A stretch of DNA of 64,000 nt from Botrytis cinerea B05.10 (lineage: Eukaryota > Ascomycota > Leotiomycetes > Helotiales > Sclerotiniaceae): positions 62,001 to 126,000 of the forward strand of contig NC_037315.1 of NCBI RefSeq assembly GCF_000143535.2, read 5' to 3'. Every line of letters begins with the position of its first letter. The first letter of the stretch is position 1. Of this stretch, positions 14,210 through 55,420 are shown piece after piece. A program made the position numbers and the translations under genes. The notes under the pieces were generated by a model that was not told the DNA's origin, searched no databases, and saw nothing but the letters and a program-made list of their open reading frames with translations.

Positions 14210-15176
14210 TCAGTCAGAAGATTCCTTCTCGCCGTCTTTCTCCTTTGTAACTGCTGGCTCAACCAATCCTTCGATAGTAAGCATTGGTGTACCATACGCA
14301 TAATCCTTTGAACCATTGATATAGTTGACGCCGGGGATTCGGTGGTGAGTGGATGGATATCTCTTGGCACGCTCAAGGTAATACGCGTCGTGGTTGTCGC
14401 CATCGACTGCACGATTGTAGGTAGCATAGAGAACTCGACGATCATCGGTGCTGTTGTTGGGTCCACTCCTATGAGCAAAAGAGGTTCCGAAGATGAGGAT
14501 ATCACCTGTGCGAACTCTGTTAGTTTTGATTTTGATCTGTGATTGAGGAAGTTTGTCTTACCAGCTTCAAGGTTAACTGGGATCCATTCTTGAGCCTCGA
14601 CCCAACTCTTTTCAAGAGTCTTGTCAGCGCCGATTGGAATTTTCATCTTGTGGCTACCAGAAACCACCTCCATACCGCCGTTCTTTTGGTTGGCTGGGTC
14701 AATTGCGATGGCAATAGACAAGTGTTTGAGGTTACTGAAGGCACCATAGCCAGCACGGTCAACATGTGCAGCAAATCCACCAGAGCCAGCAAACTTGTAG
14801 TTCACTTGGAAAGTTAGCAAAGTCTTGAAAATTTGAAGGGGTAAGACTCACACTTGTCTTTAAAAAGAACCATGTGGCCATTTGCCAATTGGCTAACAAT
14901 GCTCACAAGTTTCATGCCACGTAGAAGTGAGTTGAAGCCTGGAACAGCAGTTGTGAAGTTCTCAACTCTACACAGCACACGTTCTCCATTCTTGTTGATC
15001 TCATCGTATTGAAGGTAATCGCAAGCCTCTTTGACTCGTGGAAGATCATGTGCAGTTTGAGCCCAGAATTTGTGATTTTCAATCTCTTGTTCATTGAGAG
15101 CATTTGTGATGACCAAGTAGCCATTCTCTTCAAAGAAGAGGTGCTGCTCACGAGTGATAACATAAGCAGACTCCAT
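14210..15176 (-). CDS. Phytanoyl-CoA dioxygenase (PhyH) family protein
   Basis: Fe(II)/2-oxoglutarate-dependent oxygenase of the PhyH family. Three exons, ATG at 15176: 14852-15176, 14562-14804 and 14210-14505, separated by introns of 47 nt (GTGAGT...CCAAG) and 56 nt (GTAAGA...CACAG), giving 287 aa. The N terminus has the family opening FFEENGYLVITNALNEQEIE. The metal triad is visible: H and D in GSGGFAAHVDRAG (start of exon 2) and the distal His in LIFGTSFAHRSGPNNSTDDR (exon 3); the 2-oxoglutarate Arg follows in RRVLYATYNRA. Length is normal for the family and all ligands are present, so it should be active. It is not next to an evident biosynthetic cluster, so the substrate is unknown; related fungal proteins act on lipids or specialised metabolites. 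Confidence 0.9.
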
Positions 15177-18127: not shown

Positions 18128-18128
18128 G

Positions 18129-18137
18129 TATATAAAG
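18129..18137 (+). promoter_or_regulatory. TATA box upstream of first OPT gene
   Basis: TATATAAAG lies about 95 bp before the ATG at 18228, preceded by a GC-rich GCGGGG. Between it and the start codon is an ATG at 18145 opening a 14-codon frame that stops at 18187-18189; if the transcript begins upstream of 18145 this would act as an upstream ORF. Confidence 0.5.
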
Positions 18138-18227
18138 ATATGCCATGGAAGCAAACCCCAAGAGAATTCTGTGTTTAAGCCGTTGTTAAGTTTGTGTATT
18201 TCCTCTCCTCACAGACTTGTCTTCATC

Positions 18228-26071: not shown

Positions 26072-26438
26072 ATAAGGATGAATGGCAAGAGAGGATAGGC
26101 AGGATTGTTGGGATCAACTTGTGGAGGACTTCATTCAATGTATGTCGTGGAAGGCTCTTGGGTGGTCTTCCTCATCCCGCACGCGTGGATCTCGATCGTG
26201 CCCCAGAGGCAAACAGAGTCTCGTATGAAATAGACGTCCTGTTAATATAACCATGATAAGAACATGTCCTCCACTTGTTGTTTCATCTGTTTTGTTCCTT
26301 CTTTGTGCAAGTTTTATATACGAGTGAAGTGATATCTATAAACCACATTTTTATATCAAAATAACTATAAGCGTGAATACACCGAATGACTCACTTGCCG
26401 ACTTGATCGGATATATCCGGTAATAACGGGTCGTGATA
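26072..26438. other. Intergenic region
   Basis: About 370 bp after the second OPT gene. No gene; it includes a short partial palindrome (ggatatatccgg, 26409-26420) close to the element at 26439. Confidence 0.4.
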
Positions 26439-26800
26439 CAGAAAAACTTGGCTATACCGGACTGGTATATACCGGAATCTATATACCGGAATAATTTCCT
26501 GATTTGTGCACTTTTTATATGGTGATACCGGATTTTTTGGATATACCGGTATACCGGACACTTTTTTTGCGAATCCGGTATAAATTTTGGTGGTAAATTT
26601 AGCTGAATAAGCTTTTTTTTGATTAATAAGCTTGATTCGCTATAGTCACATGATTTTTTCCGAAAATATCGGGCTTTAAAGCTGAAATCGGATATAAATC
26701 TTGGTTAGAAAGCTTGGACCACCATTTTTTATACCGGAATCTTCTTTATACCGGATTTGATTGGTCGAAAATCTGAGTCCGGTATAACCAAGTTTTTCTG
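26439..26800. mobile_element. TA-flanked non-autonomous Tc1/mariner-type MITE
   Basis: A 25-bp terminal inverted repeat with one mismatch: CAGAAAAACTTGG, then C or T, then TATACCGGACT. TA dinucleotides flank both ends (26437-26438 and 26801-26802), as expected for Tc1/mariner-type insertion. No open frame inside. The interior is filled with about ten copies, in both orientations, of the octamer ATACCGGA or a close variant, an unusual density of repeated subterminal motifs. Confidence 0.85.
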
Positions 26801-27478
26801 TACGAGTCATGAAGATAGCTGAAATAACCGAAAATAACCTCGGAGCTGACAAATGTGACATGTAATCCTTAGCAAAACGAAGAAAGTGGGATACCAACAA
26901 ATGTACTTTCCAAAATTCGATATCAATTCAGATAAATATTTCAAATATGACTCTCTACAGGATATGACAGGAAGCATGTGCTAGAATATGAGGGCATTCA
27001 GAAATTGATTGAATTCAGTGTACTAACTGACTAGAAGGACAAGGGCCCTGACATATAGATTTCTGACTGATCTATATGCCAGAGCTCTTGCTGATACGAA
27101 TTGGAGCTAGCTCCCCCTGCTCTAGTACCCATAAAAAACAATATCTCTCAACAATATTCTTGATTTTGATACAAATATTTGTATAATATATATATTCATG
27201 AAATAAACTATTATTCAATCATTTCAATCTTGATTTACAGTGATAATATTGAGTGGTTGAGTGTTCCCATAATTTGCGGGGTAGATGAACGCGGGGGCGG
27301 GAGCCTTCCGTGTTTAATAAGTCTGGAAATATCACCACCCAGTGGATAGTATGTTGCATGTACATTGTATCATCTTTTGGACAGTGATAATTCATTTTGA
27401 TTCCCTTCCATTTTCTATCTTTACGGATCAATTCAATTCTAGTAATCCCTCTGTTCTAAATAACTACACACACCCAAA
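26801..27478. other. Intergenic region upstream of the acyl-CoA ligase
   Basis: No gene. An imperfect hairpin is present at about 27044-27086 (CATATAGAT and ATCTATATG arms, CTG-type extensions). The remainder is the promoter region of the ligase. Confidence 0.4.
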
Positions 27479-29613
27479 ATGCCCATTTCCTCTCGCTGGC
27501 ATCTCTCCATCCCTTCCATCTCCCTCCCAACCTACCTTTTTACTTCCTCCACGCACCCCCTCCCAGATAAACTGGCCTTCATTGACGCTTCGAATCCTTC
27601 TCAATTCCTCACTCAATCAGATTTTCGACTATATTCCCAACGTTTAGCTGCTGGGTTGATCAAAAATGGTTTACAGCCGGGAGATAGAGTTCTACTCTTT
27701 TCGAGTAATAATCTCTTCTTTCCAGTGATTATCATGGGAATTATTATGGCAGAAGGAATTTTTACAGGTGCAAATCCGGGGTTTGTGGAAAGGGAATTGG
27801 CTTATCAGCTTAGTGATTGTGGAGCGAAGTTTCTACTTTGTGGGGAGGGAGGTTTGGAGGTGGGAATCAAAGCAGCCGGGAAAGTAGGCTTAGGGAGGGA
27901 GAAATTGTTTGTATTTGACGATATAGAGAAGGAAATTGGTATCATAAAACAGGAGACGAAAGGACTAAGGAGTTGGTGGGAACTTCTAGAGACTGAGGAA
28001 GTAGGGGGAAAGTTTCAATGGAAGGAAGATTTTGATCCGAAGGAAGCGGTTTGTTGTTTAAATTATAGCTCTGGTACAACGGGTGTACCTAAGGGAGTGA
28101 TGATCACGCATTATAGTAAGTTCTGACATTCTTTCAAATCCTCATTTTCCCCCAAGGAGATACTACCGAGGTTTGATCGAAGATTAACAGTCATGTTACC
28201 TAGATTATGTTGCAAATTCGATACAATACAGACATTTACATGAACTCCATCCGGAAACACCAGAAAGAAACAAGAAAGCGTAAGTTCCACAGTCAAAAGC
28301 AATCATTTTCCGCTAATAATCTTTAAAAATAGAAAATGGTTATGTTTCCTCCCTCTGTACCACGCAATGGGTCAAACGATTTTTGGAGCTGTGGCACCTA
28401 AACGCGGTATTCCGGTTTATATCATGAAGAAATTTGATTTCAAAGAGATGTTAGAAGCAGTACAAAAGTATAGAATTACTTCGTTGAGTATGGTGCCGCC
28501 AATCGTTGTTGTTAGTATTCATCATTCTGTCACATTAGCCGAGGGGCACGAAACATTAACAAAGACATGTATAGATGCTCGTCAAATCGCCGCTCACGAA
28601 ACAATACGATCTTAGTAGTATCCTCGATATGGCTTCTGGCGCCGCGCCACTAAGTGGTGAGGTGATAGATGAGGTAGAGAAGCTGTGGCCAAATGGGAAT
28701 GTCAAACTTACTGTAATTTCCTCTCCGTATTTTAATTTCTCAATCACTCCATTGAAACTAATTATTGATTAAACAGCAAGGATGGGGAATGACTGAAGCA
28801 ACTTGCTCACTTCTAGGCTGCGATCCTCGACAGGATCCTGTACCGAATTCAGTAGGCGAACTTAATGCCAATTGTCATGCGAAAATTATGGATCCGGAGA
28901 CATTAGAGGAGCTTAAACAAGGTGAACGGGGTGAAATTTGGGTTCAGGCACCTAAGTACGTTATATTTCTCAGTATTAACCGACATTTACATTTTCTTGT
29001 ATTGATGTTCCATATCACTCATAACATATTACACAAAGCATCTAACAAATCAAAGTGTAATGAAAGGATACTGGAAAAAACCTTCTGCCACCCAAGAAAC
29101 CTTGATAAACTCCCCATCTGGTATCTGGCTTCGCACAGGAGACATCGCTTACGTCGATTCTCGAAACCATTTTTTCATTGTAGATCGGATGAAAGAACTT
29201 ATTAAAGTAAAAGGCAATCAAGTGGCTCCTGCGGAATTGGAAGCTTTGTTATTAGAACATCCGGAGATTGCAGATGCAGCCGTAATTGGAGTAATGATCG
29301 GGGAGGGAGAAGTACCCAGGGCTTATATCGTAAAGAGTGGTGGCAGTGGAAATAGACTAAACGCAGAAGAAGTGATGGGATGGGTGGAAAAGAGGACCAG
29401 TAGATTTAAGTGGTTGAAGGGTGGTGTGGAGTTCGTAGAGGCAATTCCTAAGAATCCGGTGAGTTTTCGTCTCCACTCTTGGATGGTAGTCTAAGGAAGT
29501 TTCATAAAATACACGAACTAACGGGGTTTTAGAGCGGGAAAATATTGAGGAAGTTGTTGAGAGAGAAGGCTAAGGAGGAGATCAGTAAAATTTACACAAA
29601 AGCTCGGCTTTGA
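27479..29613 (+). CDS. Acyl-CoA synthetase / 4-coumarate-CoA-ligase-like protein, peroxisomal
   Basis: ANL-superfamily enzyme that adenylates a carboxylic acid and forms its CoA thioester. Seven exons: 27479-28115, 28204-28279, 28333-28510, 28575-28712, 28777-28955, 29056-29458 and 29533-29613; 563 aa. Motifs: P-loop YSSGTTGVPKGVMITH, FLPLYHAMGQT, QGWGMTEAT, WLRTGDIAYVD, the hinge and linker IVDRMKELIKVKGNQVAP, and PKNPSGKILRK with the catalytic lysine in the last exon. All expected catalytic residues are present. The protein ends in Ala-Arg-Leu, a permitted type-1 peroxisomal targeting signal, which suggests peroxisomal location as in many fungal 4CL-like ligases. The substrate (aromatic acid or fatty acid) cannot be read from sequence alone. 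The next gene, a quinate/sugar-type transporter, could fit aromatic-acid use, but that is speculation. Confidence 0.92.
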
Positions 29614-30656
29614 GACTCAGTATAGTCGGAACGAGGTTTTGGCAATATGTAAATGTAATCTCAAATATCAATCAATGTAGTCAAATGATAATGAAAGACT
29701 ACATGATCGTGTGCACCACGAAAAAACACTTTCAAAACAATTATCGAGAAGTATGTGAATTTCTCATGACTTTTCTTCCTCAAATTTATGTCACCAAAGC
29801 AAATAGTTGACACATCCATTTTTTATACCAATTCATAGTCTTTTGGAAGCGCAGGGGAGCTTTCAAATGCCAAGATTGTAGAAATTTCAGACCACATTAG
29901 CTCATCACAGTCATTATATAGTTAGGTCTAATTACACAAACGTTTCAGCGTCTTTAACATGACAGATATACAAATATACATGTTCATGATTGCTCTGTTA
30001 ATGAATGAATTACACTATCCCACTCATCATTTTAAGTACCGGAAAAGTCTCGGGTAACCCCTCTTCCCCGTGGGGTACATGCCAACCCCCACGTTTTTGA
30101 CTTACACGCAGTATGACGTGAAAGAAACTCCACTACTCCATCATTCGTCAACTTCTTTCCACCAAACGAAAATTTCCCCGAGGTATAGCACGCGGACAAG
30201 ACTATTAAGGAAATCCGCTCCAAATCCTAGTCAAAAAATGCTTCAAATCCCGCCTCTTTTCCACAATGGTCTTATTTCACGAATGCTTTTCTACTCTGAT
30301 ACCCCGCAAACAGTAAATGTACACGCATCAATTCGTGAGTTAGCGAGTTTGATCTGTTACACCCCAGATCTTCGTGGTACGAGTAATGGCGTGGGGGTGG
30401 ATTGAAAAACGGGATGAGGTGACGGCAATGACTATGGTTACATCGCATAATAAAAATTAATGATCCACTTGCTGTTTATACAAGTAGATGTGGAAGAATG
30501 AAGCAAAATTCATTTTCCCCCTCGTCGATTGATTGCTTTTGTCCTCTCTGCCTCCCATAATTAGCAATCGTTTGTTGTATTGTTCTCTACTCCACGCAGA
30601 CATATTGGACAAATTATCTTTACAATATTTGATGATAGTCACAAACAATTGCCACT
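29614..30656. other. Intergenic region
   Basis: About 1 kb between the ligase and the MFS transporter, same strand. Nothing recognisable; it should hold the ligase 3' end and the transporter promoter. Confidence 0.4.
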
Positions 30657-32396
30657 ATGTCCACATCTCACACTATTGGATCACCAAGCACCAATTCTCA
30701 AAATATTCTTGAAACATCAACTTCATCAAGACCATCACGTTATCGTCAATTCATCGATGATATATCCGCAAACCGCAATGCATATTTTCTCACAGTAGTC
30801 GCCTCATTTGGCGGCATGTTTTTCGGTTGGGATACCGGACTTATCGGTGGAATTCTCACGATGCCCGCATTCCAAGATTCATTTGGACTCGAAAAAGGAT
30901 CCTCAACTTACACTAATGTTTCGGGAAACATTGTTTCTGTCCTACAGGGAGGATGTTTCTTTGGTGCATTGTCAAGTTTTTATATTAGTGATGTTTTTGG
31001 TAGAAAAAAGGCATTGTTTGTAGCTGATTTCATCTTTTTGGTGGGTTCGATCATTCAAACCACCAGTGGAATGGGAACAACGAGTTTAGGACAACTTTAT
31101 GCGGGAAGATTCATTGGAGGGTTTGGGGTTGGATTAGTGAGTGCGGTTGTACCAACTTACATTGGAGAGAATGCTAGTAAGGAGATAAGGGGGAGATGCG
31201 TGGGGTGTATGCAGTTGTTTAATGTGTAAGTGCCCAATTCTCGTTATTCCCGAGAGATCATACTAACAAATCATAGAACTGGCATAATGCTCGCTTATTT
31301 TATAAATTATGGTATGAACAAGAACATAGCCGGCAACAATCCGCTTAAATGGAGGGTTCCTTTCGCTTTACAAATGCTTCCAGGTGTCTTTCTCGGACTA
31401 GGACTCTTTTTCCAAAATGAAAGTCCACGATGGCTCGTCGAAAAAGACCAACATGAAAAGGCTCTTCATGCACTCTCCCGTGTTCGTCGTCGTTCTCCCA
31501 CAGATCCACTGATCCAACGCGAATACAATGAAATAATTGCGGACTTTCACGGAAAAGAGAAATTAACCCTCATTCGACAAATGAAACTCACGGTCTCGAA
31601 CAAATCTTCGTTCTACGCTGTTTCTTTAAGTGCAATCCTTATGTTTTGGCAACAGTGGACCGGGACAAATAGCATCAATTATTATTCTCCAGAAATATTC
31701 GAGACGGTGGGCCTGAAAGGCACATCTGCAGGACTTTTTGCAACAGGAATTTATGGTGTCGTGAAAGTTTGCGTTACTGCACTAGGACTTATGTTTGCGA
31801 CAGAGCAAGTTGGCAGGAAGTGGTGTTTGATTGTAGGAGGATTGGGACAAGCATTTGCTATGTTCTATATTGGTATAAACCAAGCTGTCAATCCTCCAGT
31901 TGATGGAGCACCCTTGGACGGAAACTCCACCTTCGCAATTGTTTGCGTCTACCTCTTTGTTGTATTCTATTCCTTTGGCTGGGGACCCATTCCATTCGTT
32001 CTCAGTTCCGAATGTTCTCCCAACCATCTACGCAGTTTTAGTATGGCACTTGCTATTGCAGTACAATGGTTATTCAACTTTATCATCTCGAAGATCACAC
32101 CATTTATGCTAAGTGGGATTACCTACGGAACTTTTTTGCTTTTTGGTGGGTGTTGCATATTGATGACAATTTATGCGGTTATCTTTGTTCCGGAGACGAA
32201 GAATGTTCCACTAGAGAGAATTCATACGCTTTTCGAAGGAGAGATCATAAAAGGGGCATGTAAGGATACGATACCTCGATTGAGAAGATCTAATATGTTG
32301 AGGGAGATGAGAAGGGATGGGGAGGAGGAGGATTTCGGAAAGGGGGATGACAATGGAATGAGTGTACATGTTGAGAGGGTGGATGGAAGGGTTTAA
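30657..32396 (+). CDS. MFS sugar porter family transporter (quinate/hexose type), 562 aa
   Basis: Major facilitator of the sugar-porter family, plasma membrane, about 12 membrane spans. Two exons, 30657-31225 and 31277-32396, with one 51-nt intron (GTAAGT...ATCATAG). Signatures: ASFGGMFFGWDTGLIGG in TM1, SDVFGRKKA between TM2 and TM3, AGRFIGGFGVGLVSAVVPTY, PRWLVEK in the central loop, QQWTGTNSINYYSPEIFE in TM7, EQVGRKW between TM8 and TM9, and FVPETKNVPLERI after TM12. These include both halves' GRK motifs and the PETK signature, so the protein should be functional. The cytosolic tail is about 60 residues and acidic. The overall look is nearest to fungal quinate and hexose transporters; substrate not determined. 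Confidence 0.92.
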
Positions 32397-33158
32397 AAGG
32401 GAAATGAGATTCATTAAATGTTGAGAGTCAGCTTCGGTAGAAAGTGTACATTTTAATATTCAAGGAAAATTAATGTGTTCTTGAACATATAGAGAAAGAT
32501 GGGCATCAGTGTGAAAACCACTCTTTCAGAGTTTCGCGAACAAAATTTTCTCATCTCTAGAATGACACGCAACGAACGATTTATTTTCATGTATATTTTG
32601 CAAAGCCACAACGCGGAATAAGATAATGAACGCACATTTATGATCGTTCGACGTCTGTAGCTTGAGAAGAATGGCGTTGATTAAAAACGAACGCCGCGAC
32701 AACGAACATGTGGCGACATACTTTATGCCATACATCGCTGACTATATGGGCATAGAGGAGCATATTTATATCAAATCATGATGATCACAATCAAGATCAC
32801 ACATTTGATCGTGTGATGAAACTTTTGGCTGCTCTACTCGTAGCACCTTGGGTGCGATTTAGGAACGATTTCGATCGTCTTCCCTCAACTAATACATTAT
32901 TGCAGCCCGCAGAGACTATCTACTGACAAAAAAATTCAATTCCAATAACATCGCAGATACGGACTTCATTTTGGATAATAATACTTGGCCATATAGCTCA
33001 AATGAAAAGACAATTATAAAGAATTACTCAATATTACAATGGGTATATCCTTGAACTAAAAGATATTAGTTCACTAGTCGTCTTCCTGACTGCGAATAAT
33101 CTGTCAAGAATCAATCAAAGACAACATCTCCTATATTTCCAATTCTCAAAGAGCTCCT
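32397..33158. other. Intergenic region between convergent genes
   Basis: About 760 bp holding the 3' ends of the MFS gene and the minus-strand methyltransferase. A small palindrome (TCACAC...GTGTGA near 32800) is present. No gene recognised. Confidence 0.4.
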
Positions 33159-34644
33159 TTAAGGTTTCCTTCCATACACTAGAACCCTAATTCAGCATGT
33201 TAGCTTATCATTCCCACACAGTACAACGGAAGGAATATAGCAAGAGCCTAGTACGTACCCTTCAGAATAGCAGTGTATCTTAGTGTTTTCAATATCTGCT
33301 CTCACGCCAATCAACAGCTCATTTACCTGCTCTTTTTCCATTCCCAAGACTCTTGTGAAAAGTGCCATACTCAATCCTTCCAAGCCCATCAAGATATTCC
33401 TTTGTACCCATACGCTCAAGACTTTATTCCTTTGACCTTTTGCCCATGGACTCATCGGTGCATATTCCCTTCTCTCCACAATATCAACGAAACCGCTTTC
33501 TTCCATCCACTTCTTATAATGTGCTCCATTTGTCCAAGGTCGCCCGGCTCTCGTAGAAGCTTCTACTATCATATTGTTCCATTTTACCAATGCACAATTC
33601 TCCGGCGGCGGTGACGCATATTTGAAAGGAAAGATTGGATCTCGAAGCTCGAGGTATCCTCCTGGTGCCAGAGCTTGGAATGCCGATGCAATGACGGTTT
33701 TGGGAGAACGAAAGCAGGTCAACAAGGCGCGACCATGAATCAAGTCGAATTTTAAATCGTCAAATTTCCATGGATCTTCAGCGTCTTCGATTCGGAATGA
33801 GCAGTTCGTGGGGATACTAATTCCGGGTAAATACATCGGAGAATTAAAATCTGGGGAGTTTTGACACCTACTAATGCGGCTGAATGGGGCTAAGGTCAGT
33901 ACCAATCACCGTCGAATTGGGGTATTCATCTGCTACGCATTGTTAGAATTGTCTCATCTCGAGATTCAAGAGATTACCAAATTCAACTGCCCAAATACCA
34001 GTTCCAGTGGCAACATCTAAAACATTTATTGGGCGATCCGTGTCGATTGGCGATACGCATAACTTTCCGTCGATGGTCATGCGTAGGAACCTATGTTGAA
34101 ATTCTACAAGATCATCAGAACAAGCTGTCTCAGCCCTGAATGATGTGTGAATACATACCTAGTCTATTTTGTTCAAGCTGAGTGTCGCAAAATCTATCAG
34201 CCAATGCTATTTCCACAAAATTTCACTAGAACGTACTGCATCATTCGGCAGCGGATATTCTGTCTCATGAATCATTAGTTGCTGCTGACAGGTATATACT
34301 ATCATCGGTTACCACTTACGACCATGTTTATAACGATGATACGTTCTTCCATTTTCTTCAATGTGACGATAGAATTCCGATTCGACTGTGAAGTTAGAAC
34401 TCCTTATGTATCGTTAAATCCAGTTTAAATCTTCGATATCAGGGTTATTACCTTAAACTCATTCCACCAAGAGCAGAATCTGCATCGTTTTCTGACTGAA
34501 CTTGATCAGTTCTTGCACCCGGAAATTGGCGGGAAGATAACTCACATCTAACTCGGGTTCTCCTGCATCTACATAGGAACCCAACTCTTCAACTAGATAC
34601 GAATTAGGAGAAGGAGTGGTCTTTGGATCATCGTCTATCTCCAT
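33159..34644 (-). CDS. LaeA-like SAM-dependent methyltransferase, 5' exons problematic
   Basis: Class I methyltransferase of the LaeA/Llm type. The 3' two-thirds splices cleanly: exons ending at 34159, then 33978-34103, 33872-33932, 33259-33816 and 33159-33186. Motif I is LDVATGTGIWAVEF, followed by YPNSTVIGTDLSPIQP, motif II FDLIHGRALLTCF and motif III ALAPGGYLELRD; the protein ends VLVYGRKP, usual for the family. Upstream, the expected N-terminal pieces are all visible (ENGRTYHRYKHG near 34330-34370, QYPLPNDA near 34240-34260, and an acidic start from ATG 34644), but they cannot be joined in frame: one base is missing or extra near 34450 and again near 34200-34235. The gene may be a recent pseudogene, use unusual splice sites, or contain assembly errors. 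LaeA-like enzymes influence secondary metabolism and development. Confidence 0.75.
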
Positions 34645-43371: not shown

Positions 43372-46083
43372 TCAGTGCTCACTTCTTTCCTGGGTACCCA
43401 AGTCCTCGAAATCCTCAACGTACTCATAGTTGGCGGAGGTACGCTCTCTCGTTTGAGTGCCCATGACACTAGGTACTGGAAACTGAGCTTGAGATTGCAG
43501 CATTGGATCAATTAAGCTGTTAGAAATTGATCGCATTCCTCCGAGTATGTCTTGGGGGTATACATGACCATTCGATCTGAGGACCTGCGCATTTTGTCCA
43601 GACAGATATGATGGGATGCTGTTGCCACCGTTTGCCATCGTTGGATTTGCAAGATTTATTTCAACTTGATGCGTCGACTTTCTGGTTCCATATATTGATG
43701 CAGCTGAGCGTTGGGAAAACTGAGGCTGAAAATTACCAAATTTTTGCATTGATTCTAAATTTGGTGGCGATGGAACATTACTTCTGCCGTAGCTGACTCT
43801 AGCCTTTTGTTCGGACTGACTATGGAACGACCCGAGGTGCTGGTTATGGCTGTAAACAGCCCGAGTTTGGTGTGGTCCATCATATTCAGGGCGGCTACTT
43901 TGGCCCATGGATGGATATGCAGCACCGTATGCAGGCATTGAGTCCAAGGCTCCATTTCGTGTCATTCCAGAGCTCGGCGCCCCACTTCCCAAAGAGGGGT
44001 CAGTATAGTGAATGCCGATGTAGTTATTGTTGCCATAAATATCGCCATAATTGTTGTTGATATTACTATTGTAGGTTGGGCCACTGCTGGTAATCCCCTG
44101 ATTCATCTGGCTAGTCATGGGGCTTGCATTGGAATATGGGTCGTTACTCATACCACGATTGAATCCATCTATTACAGGCATCGAACTGGCATATGTGTCG
44201 TGGGTTAATCCCTCATTCACCCCTCTAGTTTCGGAACTTAATGCGAACCAATTGCTTTCTTCTAGTTTCAGCTTCTTCGAGTCAGGTTGTGTTTCTGCCC
44301 CCGATATCTCGCGACCCTTTCTCTTCCCGCGAAGCTTGGGCTTTTCCAAAAAGAGTTCGCGACCTGACTTCCCCTGGGCACGACGGCGACTAAAGTATTA
44401 GGGTTAGCACATGTTCATCAATGAAGTACGTGATATCACGGTAGGGACTTACTTATTTAAACTTTCCTTCTCCCATACTTCAATGTGGACACCTCCTTTA
44501 AATTTCTTTTGCTCCTTGGGCTGAGGTCTAGGCATCCCCGCCTTCTCAAGTGCATTGGCCTCTGCTTCATCCTTCAATCTCTGCTCGGCAGCCTTCTTTC
44601 GCTGATTTTCGAAAACATCACGTGGTCCCTCGTTTGGTCGCAGCCACTGAAATTCTTCCTCGGTCATTCGAACTCTAGGCCTAGTGGCATCAGGTCGCGT
44701 CTCCCAGCTGGGCCGTTTCTTTGGATCTTTGTTGGTTTTACTACCGTGGTAATTTTCACTGCTTTGAGATGCCACATCTCTGGTATTATAAACTCCGTTC
44801 TCTACACCGCCAGGCCCGTTGCCCGCTCGTTGCATTACAAATCCCGCTCTGAGGTTAACGTTGCCAGATGCTTGAAAGCAAGGATACGGTTGCGGAGCTT
44901 GAGCCGTGTTGAAATTTCCATACGGTGCATCGAGATACTGATGCGGTGGTGGAGCATGTGTCTGATCATCTTCATTCTGCATCTGCATCTCCGTGACCCG
45001 ACTGTACTTTTCTCGACCACCTAATAAATTTTGCTCAAATCTATTTTGAGCGGCTCCAACTTCATTCTGACGCATTTCTAGCTGCTGGACTGACATCACA
45101 GGTTCTGATTCCCGAATTTTAGTTGGTGATTGAGATGTTGATCCCTGATGATTTCTTGTGGTATTTTCATCATGGTTCATTGGCGATGATGGTATGCTCT
45201 GCGCCGGAAAGAAAAACTTATCGTATTGATCAAAGTTCAAAATACTCGCTGGAGACTCCTTTTCAGTCGATTTGGTGAACACATTCAATCGATCTTGTTT
45301 TGTGACTTTGTCTTCGGGTTTAACGGAACTAGAAGTTGGATCTTCGAGGATATCCGTGTTGCTCGTACCACCTAATTGTTCCGAGCCTTGAAGAACAGCA
45401 TCCTGGGCAGTCAGGGTCCCCGAACTTTGAGAACTTGTTATGCTCAATTCATTTTGGGCTAGGTACTTCATGGAAATCTCATTAGCGATCGTCGGTCTAA
45501 AAGAATCCAATATGGCTTGATTTTCATCGGTGAATTCGAGGATTTGTTCTATATTTTGTTCGGAAAGTGCATCAGAATTTCCCTGGGTGACCACTGCGTT
45601 GGCATACCATGAGCTGATCTCCTCGGAGCCAATTCCATTCAAAGTATTCAAAAAATCATCTTGTTGTTCCTGGCTCCATTCAAAGTCTTCAAGACTTGGT
45701 ATCTCGGCAGGTGTCTTGTCAACGACATTTTGCTCAATTCTTGGCTCATTTGCAGAAGCGGACGATGTTACAATAGGGTGCTTTTCGTTGGTCGTGATAG
45801 AGGAAGTATTTAGATTTGGGTTTGAACCAATCGCGTTTGATTGATCAAAATCTTCGGTTACTTGCCCCGCCGAATCAGGGTCGAACATTGACGCGGCATC
45901 GAAATCAAAAAGAGATGAGTATTGTTTGATTTCGGTGTCGGCAAGGGTCGGTGCAGTTGTAGGCTTAGGCATGGATTCCGAGCTTCTCTTTGGTTCATTG
46001 AGAACGTTTTCACCTGTCTCCTTCATGGTCTCGAAGGTCAATTCTGAACGAGGCATTGCGTCTTTGTCTGAAAAATTAGACAT
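43372..46083 (-). CDS. Disordered basic protein, member 1 of a local three-gene family, 882 aa
   Basis: Family not recognised. ATG at 46083, exon 1 44453-46083, intron 44390-44452 (GTAAGT...TTTAG, 63 nt), exon 2 43372-44389. The protein is almost wholly low-complexity: a Ser/Thr/Glu-rich acidic N-terminal half, Gln/Asn/Gly/Tyr-rich segments (including NSNINNNYGDIYGNNNYIG) and basic patches such as KPKLRGKRKGRE. The one ordered-looking block, about residues 470-545, reads KKRPSWETRPDA, then RPRVRMTEEEFQWLRPNEG, then a basic helix. This block recurs in the genes at 50738-52462 and 54259-55420, each followed by an intron in the codon after Leu-Asn. Features suggest a nuclear, perhaps transcription-related protein, which is inference only. 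Confidence 0.85.
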
Positions 46084-47177
46084 TGACAAAATTCTTGAAC
46101 GATTGTTGAAAATATTGTTGATATTTGTTATTCAAGTTCGATAGTTATTTGTTCTTCGAAAATTGTTGACTCTTTATCAGCTCAGAGATTTGATGGAGTT
46201 ATTTGGAAGTAGAAATCAGGAGAGACGCGGTCCTTTTGTATCATCTCCACGCTCATCAAAAACCGTTCCTAAAAGTCTTAGTACTGTCACTAATTGACCG
46301 TGATGCCATCAACGACCGCCCAACGAGGCTTGTATACATTGTCTACATTGTTCAATACAGCATTGAATTGGTTCGCGGTCTTAATTCTGTCACGCGCTAA
46401 TTAGTTTTCTATTTCTGCTACCCTAAACGCGTGGAAAAGTTACCGTACATGATTTTGGCTGAATAACAACTGCCCATACGGTCGATGCTTAATAATGGTT
46501 GGTATGTTAGCACTTCAATAATGCAATTTTTGGCCGGAATATCTAGTGTACATACTGATGTTACCAGGTGAAGAGGTAACTAGGGTTTTTTCTTAGGCTA
46601 CAGAACTGGCGGTTGCGATAATTGATCATTTCCAGAAGTCTCCAGTCTGTTGAAATCTGTCCGTTATCATTGTGAAGAAGCTCTCTCATCCCTTGTATAC
46701 TACACAATGAGAATGTCTTTCTTAAAACTTTATACTTTGCTCATGTATATACCAAGAGCCTATACGATTTTCTGTTGTGGGTTTTCTTTCTTTTTGTCAT
46801 CAAGAGCTTTATGACGAATTTAGGAAAGTTTTCGAGCATTTCACTTTTTCTATCACAAAAGTATTGTTTCAGGTCAATTAAAATGTGGGAGAGAATTTGA
46901 GATGGATCTTCACGATATTCACAGTTATCATGCTTACGTGTGGAAAAAATATAGGTAGAAACCTTTCACTAGTGTCTCGCCCGTAACGAACACCCTAAGC
47001 TACTCATTATTCCACGAAACATTCCTTAATATCAAGAAATTGTTCGTAGACGAATTCAACAGCTTAATTAAATGTCAAAAGAAACTTTTCGCGTGAATTT
47101 GAGCCTAGACAAGATGTCTAGGTAGTTGCTGGTATTCTAACATAAGCTTAGGTAATTAAGCGAAGTTACTTGAATAA
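46084..47177. other. Intergenic region
   Basis: About 1.1 kb: promoter region of the minus-strand gene starting at 46083, then non-coding sequence. No gene recognised. Confidence 0.4.
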
Positions 47178-47522
47178 GGGCCCGTTCGGATCGTTTTTTC
47201 AATTTGTTGACTAATAATTTAGCCTAAATTTTGTAGATTTATAAAATATAAAGTAATAAATATTAATAACTACTAATCAAAGCTGTATTACAGATTTAAC
47301 GAGACTGTTTCGAGACTATCATATAAGTTTTCAAATTTTGTAAATTCACATTTTGTAGCTTTTTGTAGCCAAATATTACATTCGGTAAAACGCTTTTTTT
47401 TATTAATTTTATTGTCAATATATATTATTAGATTATATTAGCGCTCAGTGAACACTTATTTGGACCTATATTGTCAACAAATGTAGTTCTACATTGCCTA
47501 AAAAATCAATCCGAACGGGCCC
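47178..47522. mobile_element. Harbinger/Tourist-type MITE, 345 bp
   Basis: Terminal inverted repeats GGGCCCGTTCGGAT at 47178-47191 and its exact complement at 47509-47522, flanked by the trinucleotide TAA on both sides (47175-47177 and 47523-47525). A 3-bp TWA target duplication with GGGCC-type ends is the profile of PIF/Harbinger elements. The interior is AT-rich with no open frame, so the copy is non-autonomous. Confidence 0.9.
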
Positions 47523-47525
47523 TAA

Positions 47526-48970
47526 GTTTATCACGATTTTACTATCTTTCAAAATTTTAGAGAGGAAAATGAAGAGATCCGAGTCTCTAGAACACTTTCA
47601 AATAGCTCGAAGATTCGATAAGACAATCAATTTGTAGCTTATTCACTGCGACATTTCGCACATACTATGCGTCACCATTCCTCTCTCTTTCGTCAATTGC
47701 ATCTATTTATTCGCCCCCTACTTGTTCGACTCGTCTTTCGGTTTCCAGATACGTAAGTAATATTGACGGTACATTTTAGAAGTTCATGAGTTCCAAAAAG
47801 TCTTAATATGATTTTACACTCTGTGATGACAGAATCCGTGATTGACGAAGTGGTTGCTTTATTAGTCTCAGAAAATAATCAATATTTTTATAATGTATTG
47901 AAAAAAGTGTTTTTAAAGTATTAATTAGGGGGCTTTTTTTTTTATATAAATAATTAGAAATTTTTATTCTAAAGGAATTTAATAAAACTTTTGAATTCTA
48001 GTTTGAATTTTAACTTAAGATGATTACTACTTTATTTATATTGAATTCGATCAGTAATTGAAATAAATATGAATATATAGATTAGAGTTAGGTAGATAAT
48101 GTATATAAATAGTATATTTTGTATAGTATGATATAGTAGTAAAGTTTTTGATTGAAGAATAAATTGAAAGTGAAGTAAATAATCCTTTTTAAACTTTCGA
48201 TTAATACCTTTTTTTTCCTTTTAGCTCCTACACTCACTCCTTTCCTTTTTCTAGTTTTTATGTTTGCTCCCCTTTCGTTCATCTTTTCTACAATTTTAAT
48301 ATTCATCGAATCTTGAAATCCTTAAAACCCTTTAGGGTTCTCATTTTCTTTTTTTTTATTAAAAGTTAATACTAAACGGATCTCATTCTATACCGATTCT
48401 ATTTATTATTAATGAATTGATTATATCGTTATTGATGAATTGAATATATTATAAATGTAATGTATGTATAAAAATTTGTATGGGGATTTATATTGAATTT
48501 CTTTTCATCGAAATTATTAACTTTGCTACTACAGGGACAATGTATATAAAGTAACTAAATTTCAAAATACTATTATTTCTTCATCATTTCAGTATAGTAC
48601 TTTGCAGATAATAATTACTTAAGTATAGCATAACGGAATGATTAAATGCTTATTTTATAGTTACTATAACATTGAATTGTCTTACTCCTATAACTAATTT
48701 ATACATGAGTATTGCTTTGTAAGAGTTCTGGTTATAGATTGTAATACCCTTAGCGAAAATACACCAAAAACTATTAAAAATATTTCATTCATTTTTTCTG
48801 AATTATTGTCTAGCAAATTTATAACATAACACTTTGAAAAATTATTAAATATTTAATTTTGTATAGTAAAACATTATTTTTATAGGGATTTTGTTACAAA
48901 TTAATAAGGGGTGCTACGAGCTAAAGCCACAACTCTTACGATTGAAACAGTTATTGTTTTATTAATTGAC
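47526..48970. other. AT-rich intergenic region
   Basis: About 1.4 kb, AT-rich especially at 47880-48500. No gene. A short inverted repeat AACCC-TTTA-GGGTT lies near 48327-48340; it is not a telomeric array. The right end (48974 and below on the minus strand) would be the former 3' untranslated region of the gene interrupted by the transposon. Confidence 0.4.
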
Positions 48971-49022
48971 TTAGCGAACAAGTTTTGAAGATTTGGAATT
49001 CGCAAATACTCTGACTCTGTTA

Positions 49023-50859
49023 AGTTGAGTACCCCACTTTCGAACCACCCCTTTTTTGGATTATTTAAAAATATATATATATATGAATTTTAAATTTCAA
49101 TAATTTAATTATTATTTAATTTCAATATAATCTTTTGTAGTGTTAGTTTTATAAATATTATTAAAATCTTTTATTTCAATTTTTCAATTACTAATTTTAA
49201 TTTGAATTTGATATATAACTTTTATTTTTGTAAATTTTGAATTTGGATTAGTTTTTATTATCCTTTTTTTTTTTAGGTATAATCTTTTCTAATTTTTGTT
49301 TCAATTGTTTTATTCGTTTTTTGGATTGTATAAGTTTATAATTCTTAATATCAAATTCTTTTTGAATCTTTTGAAAAAGTAGTTGGTGAATTAGAATATC
49401 GATTTTATCAATTTTCTTTATTATATTAGTATATTTTCGAATATCATTTTCTTTTTGAGGGGTTTTTTATATAATAAAAGATGAATGTATATTTTATTAA
49501 AGTTTGAGATTATTATTTGAAATAGGATTTTGATATATAATCTTTTGATTATTGTTTTCAAATAATAATTTAAATAAAAAAGGTTTAATATAATTTTGAG
49601 GTTATAAATTTGAAGTTTTTTATTTAGAAATGATATTTCGAAGTGTTAAAACTTTTAATTTAATTTTTTGATAGTAGGTAAGAAAGTTTTTTTTGTTAAT
49701 AGAAATAGAATTTATTAATGAATCGAAAGTATTGAAGTAATATTGATATTCTTTTTTTAAAGGTGAAAATATTGATAAATTAAAAGGTTGTAGTATATAT
49801 AATGTATGGGGTGGTAAAAATAAAAGGTGTATATTATTTTTGAAGTATTTAAGTATAAATTGAGTGGTTTTATAGTTTTTATATTTATTTAAAATAAGAA
49901 ATTTTATTTTTTTTAATTGAATTGATATTGATTATAATATAAATATTTCTTTTAATTATTTCAAATTTGTAGAATTTGTAGTTTATTTATTATTTATAAT
50001 AATAAACTTTTATTTTTTATAATTATTAAGTTTAATAGGAAATTATTATTATTGAAATGTTTTATTTTTGAATATAATTAAAAATAAAAATGTTTTTTTT
50101 GTAATTGAAATATATTTAATAAAAGAGGTTTATGTTTTTGAATTGGGTTGTTTTTTTTGAATAAAATATTGTTTTAAATTTTCAAATATTATATTATTGA
50201 AATTTTAATTTTTTATTATATTAGTTTTATTTATATTTTATTTGTTTTTGGGTTTGATATATTTAATTGTTGGTAAATTCAATTTTTTAAAGAATTTACT
50301 TATAATTTTAATAATTGTATTATTGATATAAATATTATTGATTTTATATTGTTTTTTAATTTTAATCTTTAAATTTTTTTTCAAAAAATTATATATTTAT
50401 TATTTATTTAAAAATAAATTATTTTTTTTGAAATTAAAAATAGATTCTTTTAATTTTTATATTTGATAATAAATAGAATTAGTTTTTAAGGTTTTTTGTA
50501 TTAAAATTTAATTTATTAAAGCTTTTTTTTATATAGGAATTATTTTTTGTAGATTTTGTGTATCTTTTTTATATAAAAGGTAGTTATTTATATAGTTATA
50601 TAAAGTGGTGTAAGGAATATTATATTTTGAATAAATCTTATATATAAATATGTTTTTTGTAATTATAAAAAGTATTATAGTAATATTATTTTCAGTATAA
50701 GGTTTTGTTATAATTTAATTGATAATATATTAAAATCTTATATTAATTGAATATATAATTGTTGATTTATTAAAAATGAAATTGGAAAATAATATTTAAA
50801 ATAGGGTAAGATTTTAGGTGGTTTAAAAGAAGAGTGATCCGAAAGTGGGGTACTCAATT
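49023..50859. mobile_element. TA-flanked inverted-repeat transposon, strongly C/G-depleted
   Basis: The ends match as inverted repeats: A, A or G, then TTGAGTACCCCACTTTCG, then A or G, A, C or T, CAC (left from 49023; right ends at 50859). TA flanks both ends (49021-49022 and 50860-50861). The size, 1,837 bp, and TA duplication fit a full-length Fot1/pogo or Tc1/mariner-type element. The interior is close to pure A+T with poly-T and poly-A runs, and base composition changes abruptly at the two ends. C is much rarer than G on the plus strand. No transposase can be read. Repeat-induced point mutation is the likely cause. It sits inside the 3' end of the minus-strand gene at 50738-52462. Confidence 0.9.
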
Positions 50860-52462
50860 TATTGTAGGATTGCATTTCCTCTTTCTTTTTCCGTGCTACT
50901 TGAAAGGCTTCAAAATCCTTGTGCTTTTTGGGTTGAACCTTAAAGTCTCGAGGAATTTTTCGACCAGTGGGGTTCTTCTTTTCTTCTTCTCTAGCCTTCT
51001 GACGTTGCCTAGTTTCTGTTAGCAGTGATATCTTGGAAATTCTTTGTGAAACTCACGCATTGAGTAGATTAATCATTCTTATGGACATTACGATATTTTT
51101 CATCCCAGCCTGCCTCGAGAATTTCATTCTTTCGGGAAGAAATGCTTTGAGGGGATGTTCATCATAGTCAGGATCTATGGCCTTCATCTCTTCCAATGAC
51201 ACACTTACTCGAGACATGCAACAGGCACGTTGCTCAACTCGTGGCTGATAAATGCGATTGGTTTTGGCGAATTTGTTTCTCTTTGTGGGGTTGGGAGATC
51301 CCCGATTGATCCCACCCAACTCAAATCCATCTTTAAGGTCTGATGGGCCCCCAGCAATATTCATAGCATCGGCTTGTACTGCTGTAGCCTCTACGCCAAG
51401 GGTTCGAGTGCGCTTTCGAGAAATGGAGCAGTGATTTTCTTGTTGGTTTTCTTGACTCAGCTTTCGGAAGACTGGGACCTGATTACCATGAATCTCATTT
51501 TTACTCCCACCTCCATAGCCACTACTGTTCACATTGAAGTATTGGGTTTTTTGTTGTGTCGAATTCATGCTGTGTTCTGCAGATCGATAGGTATTTAAAT
51601 AGTCGTTAGGAATGGCCCCGTGGCTTGCGGACGTCCAATTCCCGTCTGATTGTGGATAACCCGTGAATTGATCGTGAAATTGCGAAAATTTTGGAGGCCT
51701 GATGAACTCTGGAGTTTGATTATCAAGGATAGGCATTCCATATTGACTGCACAATTGCTCAAGTCCAGTTGAGTTTTCTATGGCTGATAGCCCGCGTTTG
51801 AGAATCTTCTCTTGGTTGCTTCCTGATAGACCTGCCATCCGATCATCGAGACCAGTTCCATCCCATGTTTCATAACGGTTTTCTCTCAATTCGCCGTTGC
51901 TTGTATGAAAATTTGAGCTATTAATATCACTCAAGATGACTGATTGCCTTTCATTACTGAGAGGCAAAGCTGTCTTAACTTGTGATGGCACGATAATACA
52001 ACCTCTGGTTGCAGGAAGCATTCCCCAGAGACGACCCGTCTCCTCTGGACTTACAATTTCAAACTCGCAGTCATCATCCTCTGTGGACTTGAAAGATAAC
52101 ATATTTTGCACAGTAATAAAACTAGTTCCATTTCGGAAGCCTTTGTCTTGTTCTATGGTTCTTGCAATTAGCATGAGTGTCTTTATTGTCATGTTTGGAA
52201 TGCGCTTACCATCTTTTATAAATACTGTGCCAAGGGAATTAAGGAGTCGGTGTCTGCTTTGAGTATCATCGAGATCAGATGCTAGATCTTCTTGCCTTCC
52301 TACCCTGATATTGTCATTAAGGGAATATTGATCGATTGTCAGGTTTATACCAGGCTCATAGACCCCATTATCGTTTGTCATGTTGGAGTTGGTATGAATC
52401 TTGATTGACAGATTGTTTCGTGAAAGATTTCCCAAGTACTTCACAAGATGTTTAATTAACAT
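50738..52462 (-). CDS. Disordered basic protein, member 2 of the local family; 3' end altered by transposon
   Basis: Family not recognised. ATG at 52462 (a second Met is at residue 28), exon 1 51057-52462, intron 51009-51056 (GTGAGT...ACTAG, 48 nt), exon 2 50738-51008. The N-terminal 200 residues look more ordered than in the other members (RLLNSLGTVFIKDG, MTIKTLMLIARTIEQDKGFR, GCIIVPSQVKTALP); the middle is Asn/Ser/Gln-rich with basic patches (SRKRTRTLG, PTKRNKFAKTN). The shared motif here is SRVSVSLEEMKAIDPDYDEH followed by Leu-Asn and a basic tail (QRQKAREEEKKNP). After the codon for SYN the reading frame enters the transposon at 50860 and runs 40 residues into it before a TAA at 50738. 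Before insertion the frame would have ended at 48971 with about 16 other residues. Confidence 0.8.
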
Positions 52463-54258
52463 ATCTTTTAAACTATCCAGCTAAACAGAAGTTGTACTTT
52501 AGAAGACAAATCAATCGTATTGTTCACAATTAAGGGAGTAGGCTAGTGGAATGCATGTAGTATTGACTATGTAGAATTGCTGTAATGTTCTAAGTATAGA
52601 AGTGGAAGATATTATATATGTGTATATAAAGTGCACGTGCCATATTTTCCAACACATATTTAAATAATTTGGTACTATGAATAGAATACGCGAAGAGGTA
52701 GAGGAGCCGTATTGACGCGCTAACGCATGCGCTACTCAAGCGAGATACCATTGCCTACTACAGCACCTGCTAAGTGTTTCTGATACACGTATATATGTCA
52801 AAGATAACACCATACGGCTTTTGGCGCCGCATACATTGATACGTATTTTCTTGGTTGTTATTGCATAGTTCTCGTGAATTTTTGCTTTTCAATCCCATAA
52901 CTCCGTGCAAGCTGCAATAGAATCTTATGATTCAAATGATTGAATGAATGACTTTGGCAATTTAAGTCACTTATCAGTAATATGTAGCAAGTCATTCTCT
53001 CAAGTCACCAGGGTCTCTGTACTACTCTTCTCTGTGAATTCTCGTAACTCTGTCGTGAACTTATTCAGTAGATAATTGCTACCATCCCATTCCCAACTAA
53101 GATAAAAGACAATGGGAGGAATGTAAGAAAGCCACAGAATTGGGAAACGAGAGTTAGAGAGAAAAAATAGAAATTTTAAAGTAGTAGTAGAATATCACGG
53201 GTGTGGCTCTATCACCGTTTTCCAATTTGCGCATCTAGTTGTAAATTCAATCTGAACTCGTGTCGAGAGAAAAAAAAGTATAGACATTCTATTAATCAAC
53301 GAACTTGTCTTTCTAAAAGTCGAATATGACATGCTGCGAGTATAAGCGAAAATGATTTACGATGGCCACAGAGTTTTTGACTTTTTGTCTTTGACATGTT
53401 ATTTTTTACCTGCGATATCAGCCCATGTCGAGAGAAGCAAGATGGCAGAAAATCATGGATGTTTCTACAATATGAATCTAGTAAGTAAAAGAAATCTTTT
53501 CCCTCAAAATTAGCTTGGCATTTACAGTCAGGATCTTGTGAACAAAGGAACTAATGGGCAGGAAGACTTTTAACATGAAATTTCAAAATAATCGGGACAT
53601 AAAATTTTATTCTCTCTTTCATCAATATTATTGGAAAATATAGAAGATACACGGGAATTTTTATTGATATAAGAACTAGTAACTGTTCTGTGAGATCCTT
53701 TGGAAGCATTTTAAGTAGACAATCTTCTTTTCATTGCTCAATTTCATCCAGCTTCAAAGCTAGATGAAAATTGCCTTTACTGATACCACTTATTCCTCCC
53801 CGTTTCTTTTGGGCTGGGTTTTCTTGAAGTATGGCTTCTGGGGTTTTCTCAGAGAGTTAAAATTACTTGTCTTATGAAAATTCGAGTCTTCTGGTGTAAA
53901 AGAGCAGAAGGTGGTAGACGTCACACAAGAAAAGCCTTCGCATATACCATAGTCAATCTAATATATAGCTATGTACATTGAATAGAGGTGAATCACTATA
54001 CAGCGGTAGCGAGGTGTGGGGATACATTTGGGGCAATATCATACAATGCAGAGGTCAAGTTAAGAGGGGAAAAATTCGGTCTTCTTTAGTCTATAGAAAA
54101 AACTATAAATACTAAATAACAATATCACGTGACCAGTAGGTCACGTTTTTCCGCTCACACTGGATGTCTGGCCACGATTGTATCCAGGTGATATTTAAGC
54201 TCCGGATTTGCCATTCGATCAGTTATCGCATACTAACCTCTCATTAATTGCGATGAGA
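52463..54258. other. Intergenic region
   Basis: About 1.8 kb with no recognised gene, moderately AT-rich. It contains the promoter of the minus-strand gene at 52462 and the 3' flank of the gene at 54259. No inverted-repeat element detected. Confidence 0.4.
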
Positions 54259-55420
54259 CTACTGGGTAGACTCACGCTTTAGCTCAGGTTGGTACCGTTT
54301 ATGATCGGCCGTTCTTCTTTTCCGATTTGTCCAGGAATCCGAAACGTCTCCCATTTCCTTCTTTCTCAACCACTCATCACGACATTCCCGAAGTCTGCCC
54401 TTTGGGCAGTAGATCTTAGGCACAAAATTTGGTACGTATGTTCCAGGAGCGTAGCGCTTCATAAGCTCATTCTCCTGATGCACAGCATTACGACGGTGTC
54501 TATAGATTGGTTAGTGACGGAACTTTAAGGCAAAGGGCAATGACACACAAAGGGAAAAAAAATCATATAGATTACTTACTCATTCAGTACCTCTACTTGA
54601 TCCCAGTTTATCTGGAAAGACTTCATCCCATTCTTAGCGTTTGTCATATCTCTGAAGGCCAATCGAGGATTCTTCTCATATTCGGGATCTATAAGCTTCA
54701 TTTCTTGTTCAGTCATCCAAACACGCGGATAAGCGGACTCAGCACGCATTGTCCAAGGTGTGCGCTTTCTCTTAGTTGTTCCCTCATTCCTAAAATTTCT
54801 GGTCTCTGGGACCTCGCTATATGAGCCCTCCGATTCAGAATATCCATACCGATCGTCAATCTGTGTGCTATGCACTTCTCTGTCAATCGAGCTTGGAATC
54901 TCACGGCTTTGGTCTTCCATCATAGTGGCGTGGTTACTATTGTAGTTATTTGCCGCGATAGATTCACCAGCTACTGCACGGGATATAGCAATTGATGCTT
55001 CGAAGCTTGCTTGTTGTGCTAGGACTGGAACATCTGTGCTATTCAAGTTATTTTGGATATAATACGGGTCTGTGGGTGCTATTTCACTGTTAGTTCGAAG
55101 GTTTTTAGAAACAAGGAGCTATGCTTACTATTTGAATTTGGTGGGTCTGGATACGATCTTCTCAAATTATTTCCAATAGGCGATGAAAAGTTATATTCTT
55201 CGTCCCCCTGGTCAGTCTGGCTAAGAGTTTCCGGTGAAGGGTCTATTCCCCGTAGACTTGGGCTGTCATACATGACATCACTCGGATCAACATAATTGCT
55301 GGACTGATATTGTGGCAATGGATTAAGATAGACATTCTCCAGAAACTTTTGATTATCCTGTATTCTTTGCCCGGATGTCATGTTACCATCCATTCGTTGT
55401 CCATAGTTGGTGTTCTTCAT
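54259..55420 (-). CDS. Disordered basic protein, member 3 of the local family, about 343 aa
   Basis: Family not recognised. ATG at 55420; exons 55129-55420, 54580-55078 and 54259-54499, introns of 50 and 80 nt, all junctions in frame. The first 200 residues are polar and low-complexity. The shared block is KRKRTPWTMRAESAYPRV, WMTEQEMKLIDPEYEKNPRL and onward to VEVLNE, after which the second intron falls in the codon after Leu-Asn, in phase 2 as in the other two genes. The last exon is basic (HRRNAVHQENELMKRY, RLRECRDEWLRKKEMG, NRKRRTADHKR). A GTGAGT site just before the stop might start another intron that would change the last few residues and move the end to about 54224. Shortest of the three paralogues. 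Confidence 0.8.

What the first reader, a model, noticed from the sequence alone, without database searches (positions are those of the whole stretch)
43372..55420. Local three-member family of undescribed disordered proteins with a shared motif and intron position
Three minus-strand genes in 12 kb (43372-46083, 50738-52462, 54259-55420) are low-complexity except for one shared block: PRV-x-M-T-E-x-E, then ID/RP-x-Y/N and a basic helix, ending at Leu-Asn. In all three an intron interrupts the codon after that Leu-Asn in phase 2 (AAT AA|, AAT GC|, AAT GA|), and the exon after it starts with a basic stretch (RRRAQ, QRQKA, HRRNA). The same intron position and phase in three diverged proteins is strong evidence for tandem duplication. 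I recognise no known domain.
Basis: partly seen in the sequence, partly recalled or inferred. Interest (0 to 1): 0.75.

Follow-up and report, generated by a model that had tools for sequence, protein, structure and literature searches.

The report
Three-gene orphan family in Botrytis
Three neighbouring genes of a grey-mould fungus are old, strongly diverged copies of one gene that share one small basic domain not named in the libraries searched; the family looks real and restricted to this fungus and its relatives as far as could be searched, but its function is unknown.

Summary
The observation largely holds. In this Botrytis cinerea chromosome-6 window, minus-strand genes A (43372-46083), B (about 50.86-52.38 kb) and C (54259-55420) share one block and one phase-2 intron after Leu-Asn. 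Database proteins show the same splices. The motif PRV-x-M-T-E-x-E is exact only in A and C; B reads SRVSVSLEE. B-C homology is strong and A-C moderate; A-B is seen only through C. A, B and C were all found in 8 of 15 named Botrytis species, with consecutive locus tags in 5 of those 8. Outside Botrytis only A-type relatives appeared, in Sclerotinia sclerotiorum and Monilinia fructicola. AlphaFold2 gives strand-helix-strand-helix for C and, from A sequences alone, for A with an inserted helix; the intron cuts the last shared helix. Pfam, PDB sequence and fold searches give no relative; a homeodomain lead failed. An acidic arm plus basic domain, without hydrophobic segments, suggests nuclear nucleic-acid-binding regulators; that is inference. 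Paralog distances exceed the Botrytis-Sclerotinia distance about 3.4- to 8-fold, so the duplications are old or were followed by fast change. New: gene B's 3' end is split here by a 1.84-kb Fot1/Flipper-like transposon, whose sequence the finding took as coding.

The parts
43372..46083 (-). Gene A (BCIN_06g00200): exons 46083-44453 and 44389-43372, 882 aa
   Evidence: Spliced model; annotated protein P0013, 873 aa, starts 9 residues later
44390..44452 (-). Shared phase-2 intron of gene A (63 nt)
   Evidence: GTAAGT..TTTAG after L-N; spliced proteins such as P0013, P0042 and P0043 continue in frame
44290..44721 (-). Conserved block of gene A (KKRPSW...; about 123 aa, intron inside), with an A-only helical insert
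   Evidence: Mean pairwise identity 0.83 in the block versus 0.60 elsewhere over 9 Botrytis orthologs; AF2 model
50862..52381 (-). Gene B up to the transposon: 52381-51057 (possible extra intron 52209-52153) and 51008 to about 50862
   Evidence: Model; tblastn of P0026; intron coordinates
51009..51056 (-). Shared phase-2 intron of gene B (48 nt)
   Evidence: P0026 reads LLNAQRQKA across it
50862..51286 (-). Conserved block of gene B (TKRNKFAK...)
49023..50859 (.). 1,837-bp AT-rich (14.7% GC) terminal-inverted-repeat transposon copy in the 3' end of gene B, flanked by TA
   Evidence: TIR arms 49021-49070 / 50812-50861; length and GC; seven further terminal-repeat pairs in the genome; the one sibling examined encodes a DDE_1 / HTH_psq transposase
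48974..49021 (-). Separated tail of gene B on the far side of the insert
   Evidence: P0026 residues 473-488 match here at 93.75%
54259..55420 (-). Gene C: exons 55420-55129, 55078-54580, 54499-54259, 343 aa
   Evidence: P0001 is 99% identical over 100% of the query
54500..54579 (-). Shared phase-2 intron of gene C (80 nt)
   Evidence: C-type proteins P0001-P0012 read through it
54259..54773 (-). Conserved block of gene C (KRKRTPW...)
   Evidence: AF2 model of the orthologous block P0003

Best explanation
A, B and C are an old tandem paralog family. Its A type is shared with Sclerotinia and Monilinia, while B and C types were seen only in Botrytis. Each protein is an acidic, Asn/Gln/Ser/Thr-rich, probably disordered arm attached to one compact basic domain of about 65-90 aa: strand (RVxM) - Thr/Ser-capped helix - variable loop (a long helix in A) - strand - basic helix. 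The shared intron cuts that last helix and was inherited from the common ancestor. The most likely job is nuclear: the basic domain binds DNA, RNA or chromatin, and the acidic arm recruits partners, as in many transcription regulators. Shown: gene models, B-C and A-C homology, intron identity, conservation, and the range found. Predicted: the fold. Inferred: disorder of the arms, nuclear location, nucleic-acid binding.
For: Homology: (intron-anchored gapless 24 columns: A-C 9.3, reached by 0 of 319 windows of C, 2 of 849 windows of A and 1 of 1000 column shuffles; B-C 39.6, reached by none). Own genome at E<=10: the C query finds C and B, the B query finds B and C, and the Sclerotinia A query finds A plus one E=0.44 match. 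Orthologs. Block identity 0.80-0.83 versus 0.60-0.64 for the rest within Botrytis. AF2 of the C-type block (27 rows of all three types; pLDDT 76, pTM 0.66) and of the A block from 14 A-type rows only (pLDDT 78.5, pTM 0.60) give the same order of strands and helices. Net charge +11 to +17 in the block and -12 to -38 before it in all 5 proteins measured; highest 19-residue hydropathy 0.92.
Against: A-B similarity is not detectable directly, and A and B/C do not find each other in the genome searches at E<=10. The A-C alignment beyond about 40 columns rests on the intron and the predicted structures; other aligner settings pair A differently, and A rows in the C-type AF2 input were partly in that other register. 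A crude composition count does not separate arm from block: disorder-promoting residues are 47-53% of the arm and 53-72% of the block. AF2 confidence is middling and no DNA-binding relative is found by fold. Basic charge does not prove nucleic-acid binding. No expression or localisation data.
Confidence: 0.45

Rival explanations
1. The same paralog family, but the block is a protein-protein interaction module of scaffold or condensate-type proteins and does not bind nucleic acid.
For: Arms rich in Asn/Gln/Ser/Thr, 31-36%; no fold match to a DNA-binding domain.
Against: The block is strongly basic in all 5 proteins measured, with KR-rich stretches that look like nuclear localisation signals (by eye; signal type recalled, not tested).
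Confidence: 0.3
2. Only B and C are duplicates; A is unrelated or shares just a short motif with C, and the common intron position is coincidence.
For: A-B similarity not significant; A-C profile match covers 39 columns only.
Against: A-C E 1.4e-5; intron-anchored A-C score reached by 1 of 1000 column shuffles; same predicted order of strands and helices from an A-only alignment; the genes are neighbours.
Confidence: 0.1
3. The block is a degenerate homeodomain with the intron in its recognition helix.
For: The first profile (A2) gave as its only two PDB matches, at E 0.012 and 0.044, two homeodomains.
Against: No homeodomain match with the larger alignment A4 or the A-only alignment A5; no Pfam homeodomain for A, B, C or the 11 A2 members; AF2 shows strands where a homeodomain is all-helical; the profile alignment does not place LN-xx-RR on WFxNRR.
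Confidence: 0.04
4. The proteins are secreted and act on the plant host.
For: Found only in a small group of plant-pathogenic fungi with the searches used.
Against: No hydrophobic segment that could serve as a signal peptide: highest 19-residue hydropathy 0.37-0.92 in 5 proteins.
Confidence: 0.04

Closest known systems
Uncharacterised A-type proteins of Sclerotinia sclerotiorum (P0042) and Monilinia fructicola (P0043)
   Same: Same block (59% and 55% identical to A of B. cinerea over the aligned block), acidic arm and basic block, LN-xx-R at the junction
   Different: One member found per species; no B or C type found there with the searches available. Their DNA could not be read, so their intron was not checked
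Fungal transcription regulators with a basic DNA-binding domain and acidic arms (general layout, recalled)
   Same: Layout: acidic arm plus basic compact domain
   Different: No DNA-binding domain recognised in Pfam or PDB sequences
Homeodomain (PF00046)
   Same: Weak profile resemblance with one small alignment
   Different: Predicted strands, no WFxNRR helix 3, resemblance lost with more sequences
Flipper / Fot1-like (pogo) transposons of Botrytis (for the insert)
   Same: Terminal inverted repeats, TA flanks; DDE_1 plus HTH_psq transposase in the sibling copy examined. [quoted passage not shown]
   Different: This copy is 14.7% GC; it was not compared with the Flipper reference sequence

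Membership tests
Tandem paralog family A/B/C | Sequence homology above chance | tested here: met
   B-C and A-C met; A-B only by way of C
Tandem paralog family A/B/C | Shared intron position and phase in all three | tested here: met
   Phase 2 after Leu-Asn in all three; six intronless ORF calls end there
Tandem paralog family A/B/C | Common fold of the block | tested here: inconclusive
   Same order of strands and helices in two predictions of middling confidence; not superposed; B not modelled on its own
Homeodomain | Profile match to PF00046 | tested here: not met
   None in A, B or C at E<=1, in 11 A2 members at E<=10, or in 5 orthologs at E<=10
Homeodomain | Three-helix fold with WFxNRR in helix 3 | tested here: not met
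   Strand-helix-strand-helix predicted; L-N-x-x-R at the junction
Nucleic-acid-binding nuclear regulator | Binding of DNA or RNA | not testable with these tools
   Only charge and layout
Secreted effector | N-terminal signal peptide | tested here: not met
   Crude test only: no hydrophobic 19-residue segment in 5 proteins
Fot1/Flipper-like transposon (insert) | TIRs, TA target site, DDE transposase | tested here: met
   TIRs and TA in this copy; transposase shown only in one sibling copy, L016

The most novel reading that the evidence does not exclude
The block is an undescribed nucleic-acid-binding fold of Sclerotiniaceae or near relatives. It founds a new family of fungal regulators whose B and C branches arose by tandem duplication and are now kept only in Botrytis.
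Probability: 0.2. Interest if true: 0.55.

Novelty: new member of a known kind. Interest (0 to 1): 0.3.

Why it matters
Lineage-restricted gene families of unknown function are common in fungi (general knowledge). This one is unusually tractable: three adjacent genes, one conserved domain, clear orthologs in many Botrytis species and one-gene outgroups. If the domain binds nucleic acid it would be a new type of fungal regulator. The transposon-split allele of gene B in this genome, beside an unsplit protein recorded from another B. cinerea source, also warns that a gene model taken from this genome alone is misleading.

Tried and rejected
Homeodomain reading: raised by the A2 profile, dropped after A4, A5, Pfam and both AF2 models. 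The homeobox loci of the own genome were listed, but their introns were not examined once the reading had failed.

Weak matches judged chance: ribosomal L8, E 0.49; hnRNP A2/B1, E 0.37 and 0.5; Styelin 0.012, EF-hand_7 0.02 and DUF3847 0.39 in P0043, the last lying inside the block, all under their Pfam cut-offs; Rad52_Rad22 0.079 and Chromo_2 0.27, each in 1 of 11 members; all Foldseek rows (24, 2 and 20), none with E<=0.001; and an own-genome match on C11 at E 0.44, whose surroundings I only glanced at in translation.

Distances: a 38-column tree gives A-C 2.03, B-C 1.36 and A-B 3.20, versus 0.40 between Botrytis A and Sclerotinia A. The columns were anchored by hand and are few, and 27 of the 43 proteins were used, so this is a rough guide only; branching order was not read from it.

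Rows left out: for the conservation figures A used 9 Botrytis rows (11 with Sclerotinia and Monilinia: 0.74 in the block versus 0.49 elsewhere), without P0016, P0022, P0024, P0025; B used 12, without P0036, P0040, P0041; C used 12, without P0039.

Literature: text searches for BCIN_06g00200 and neighbouring tags found no paper; a search for lineage-specific or disordered Sclerotiniaceae proteins listed two papers, of which I saw only titles and abstract starts, neither naming these genes there. Supplementary tables could not be searched. Of PMC4188875, PMC3158057 and PMC10971195 only the passages were seen.

The A-only search missed the Sclerotinia and Monilinia homologs that the later profile search found, and only 7993 candidates were scored, so relatives in other fungi, and B/C types in Sclerotinia, may have been missed.
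Full report
Origin. The window lies at G000:C6:62001-126000 of a 42.63-Mb, 18-contig genome. Gene A is 100% identical over the searched region to the cluster named BCIN_06g00200 of Botrytis cinerea B05.10.

Gene models. All three genes are on the minus strand. A: 46083-44453 and 44389-43372, 882 aa. C: 55420-55129, 55078-54580 and 54499-54259, 343 aa. In each, an intron interrupts phase 2 of the codon after Leu-Asn. Spliced database proteins continue across the junction with the same residues. Six ORFs called without introns end exactly one codon after LN. Three of these, one of each type (P0025, P0039, P0041), are listed with the same longest contig length, 14,466 bp, which suggests that all three genes sit together, with these introns, in another sample.

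Is the sharing real? Pairwise local scores: B-C 90 (0 of 2000 shuffles reach it), A-C 67 (1 of 2000), A-B 38 (548 of 2000). Profile-profile: C-B E 8.6e-12 over 106 columns, C-A E 1.4e-5 over 39 columns, B-A nothing (E 0.37 over 7 columns). With the intron as anchor and no gaps, 24 columns of A and C score 9.3; 0 of 319 windows of C, 2 of 849 windows of A and 1 of 1000 column shuffles reach that. B-C scores 39.6 with none reaching it; A-B scores -5.7, reached by 69 of 1000 shuffles. So A belongs through C. The motif PRV-x-M-T-E-x-E is exact in A and C but is SRVSVSLEE in B.

Range. Protein searches gave 12 C-type hits, 13 A-type hits and, with a profile, 37 hits that include B types and two A-type proteins from Sclerotinia sclerotiorum (E 1.7e-20) and Monilinia fructicola (E 7.2e-13). 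Sorting the named hits of the three calls by species, A, B and C were all found in 8 of 15 Botrytis species (cinerea, calthae, convoluta, hyacinthi, aclada, globosa, byssoidea, paeoniae). In 5 of these 8 the source locus tags are consecutive (calthae, hyacinthi, aclada, globosa, byssoidea). In convoluta A and B are next to each other and C two tags on; in paeoniae A and B are next to each other and C is on another contig tag; the cinerea records come from different strains. The other 7 species gave one or two members. In the own genome at E<=10, C found C and B, B found B and C, and the Sclerotinia A block found A plus one E 0.44 match; A and the B/C pair did not find each other there.

Age. 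In a rough 38-column tree (27 sequences) A-C distance is 2.03, B-C 1.36 and A-B 3.20, while Botrytis A to Sclerotinia A is 0.40. The duplications therefore either predate the split of the genera, with B and C lost or not detected elsewhere, or were followed by fast change. 'Tandem duplication' is right as far as the evidence goes, but not for a recent event.

A lead that failed. The first, smaller profile picked two homeodomains as its only PDB matches (E 0.012 and 0.044). With more sequences, and with A alone, no homeodomain appeared, and both models show strands. I reject the homeodomain reading.

Likely role. In the 5 proteins measured (A, B, C, Sclerotinia, Monilinia) the part before the block is acidic (net -12 to -38) and 31-36% Asn/Gln/Ser/Thr, and the block is basic (+11 to +17); the highest 19-residue hydropathy is 0.92. 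A crude count of disorder-promoting residues does not single out the arm (47-53%) against the block (53-72%), so disorder of the arms rests on low conservation and composition and was not tested with a predictor. The layout fits nuclear regulators with a nucleic-acid-binding domain. That step is inference; a protein-interaction role is the main rival.

Gene B is split in this genome. An inverted-repeat element with TA flanks, 49023-50859 (1,837 bp, 14.7% GC), sits in its 3' end. The tail matches P0026 residues 473-488 at 48974-49021. Seven other pairs of the same terminal repeat lie about 1.83 kb apart in this genome, and the one sibling examined, L016, encodes a DDE_1 / HTH_psq / HTH_Tnp_Tc5 transposase, i.e. 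a Fot1/pogo-type element. [quoted passage not shown] an earlier paper reports four Flipper copies in another B. cinerea genome release (PMC4188875, passages). P0026, from another B. cinerea record, is unsplit. So the finding's end coordinate 50738 and the last 40 residues of its gene B are transposon sequence. The block itself is intact on the near side.

Verdict. A real, old family with a small predicted domain for which the libraries searched hold no name; the surprise is moderate because orphan families are common and no function could be shown.

Noticed in passing
49023-50859: AT-rich Fot1/Flipper-like terminal-inverted-repeat transposon copy splitting the 3' end of gene B; seven further terminal-repeat pairs elsewhere in the genome.
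   Followed up: yes
47178-47522: Short element of about 345 bp with inverted ends (GGGCCCGTTCGGAT); the 16-base end occurs at 15 places in the genome with up to one mismatch, both ends of this copy included, versus 2 for the reversed control. MITE-like.
   Followed up: partly
52153-52209: Possible additional phase-1 intron in gene B (57 nt, no stop, GTAAGC...GCTAAT...ATAG), left out in P0026 but read as coding in P0027. Gene C has a phase-1 upstream intron with the same donor GTAAGC.
   Followed up: partly
14122-33905: Neighbouring exons with Pfam matches: PhyH dioxygenase, OPT transporter exons at 18.7-20.7 kb and again at 23.7 kb (the early part of the profile matched twice, so probably two genes), AMP-binding enzyme, sugar transporter, methyltransferase; possibly a metabolic cluster.
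   Followed up: no
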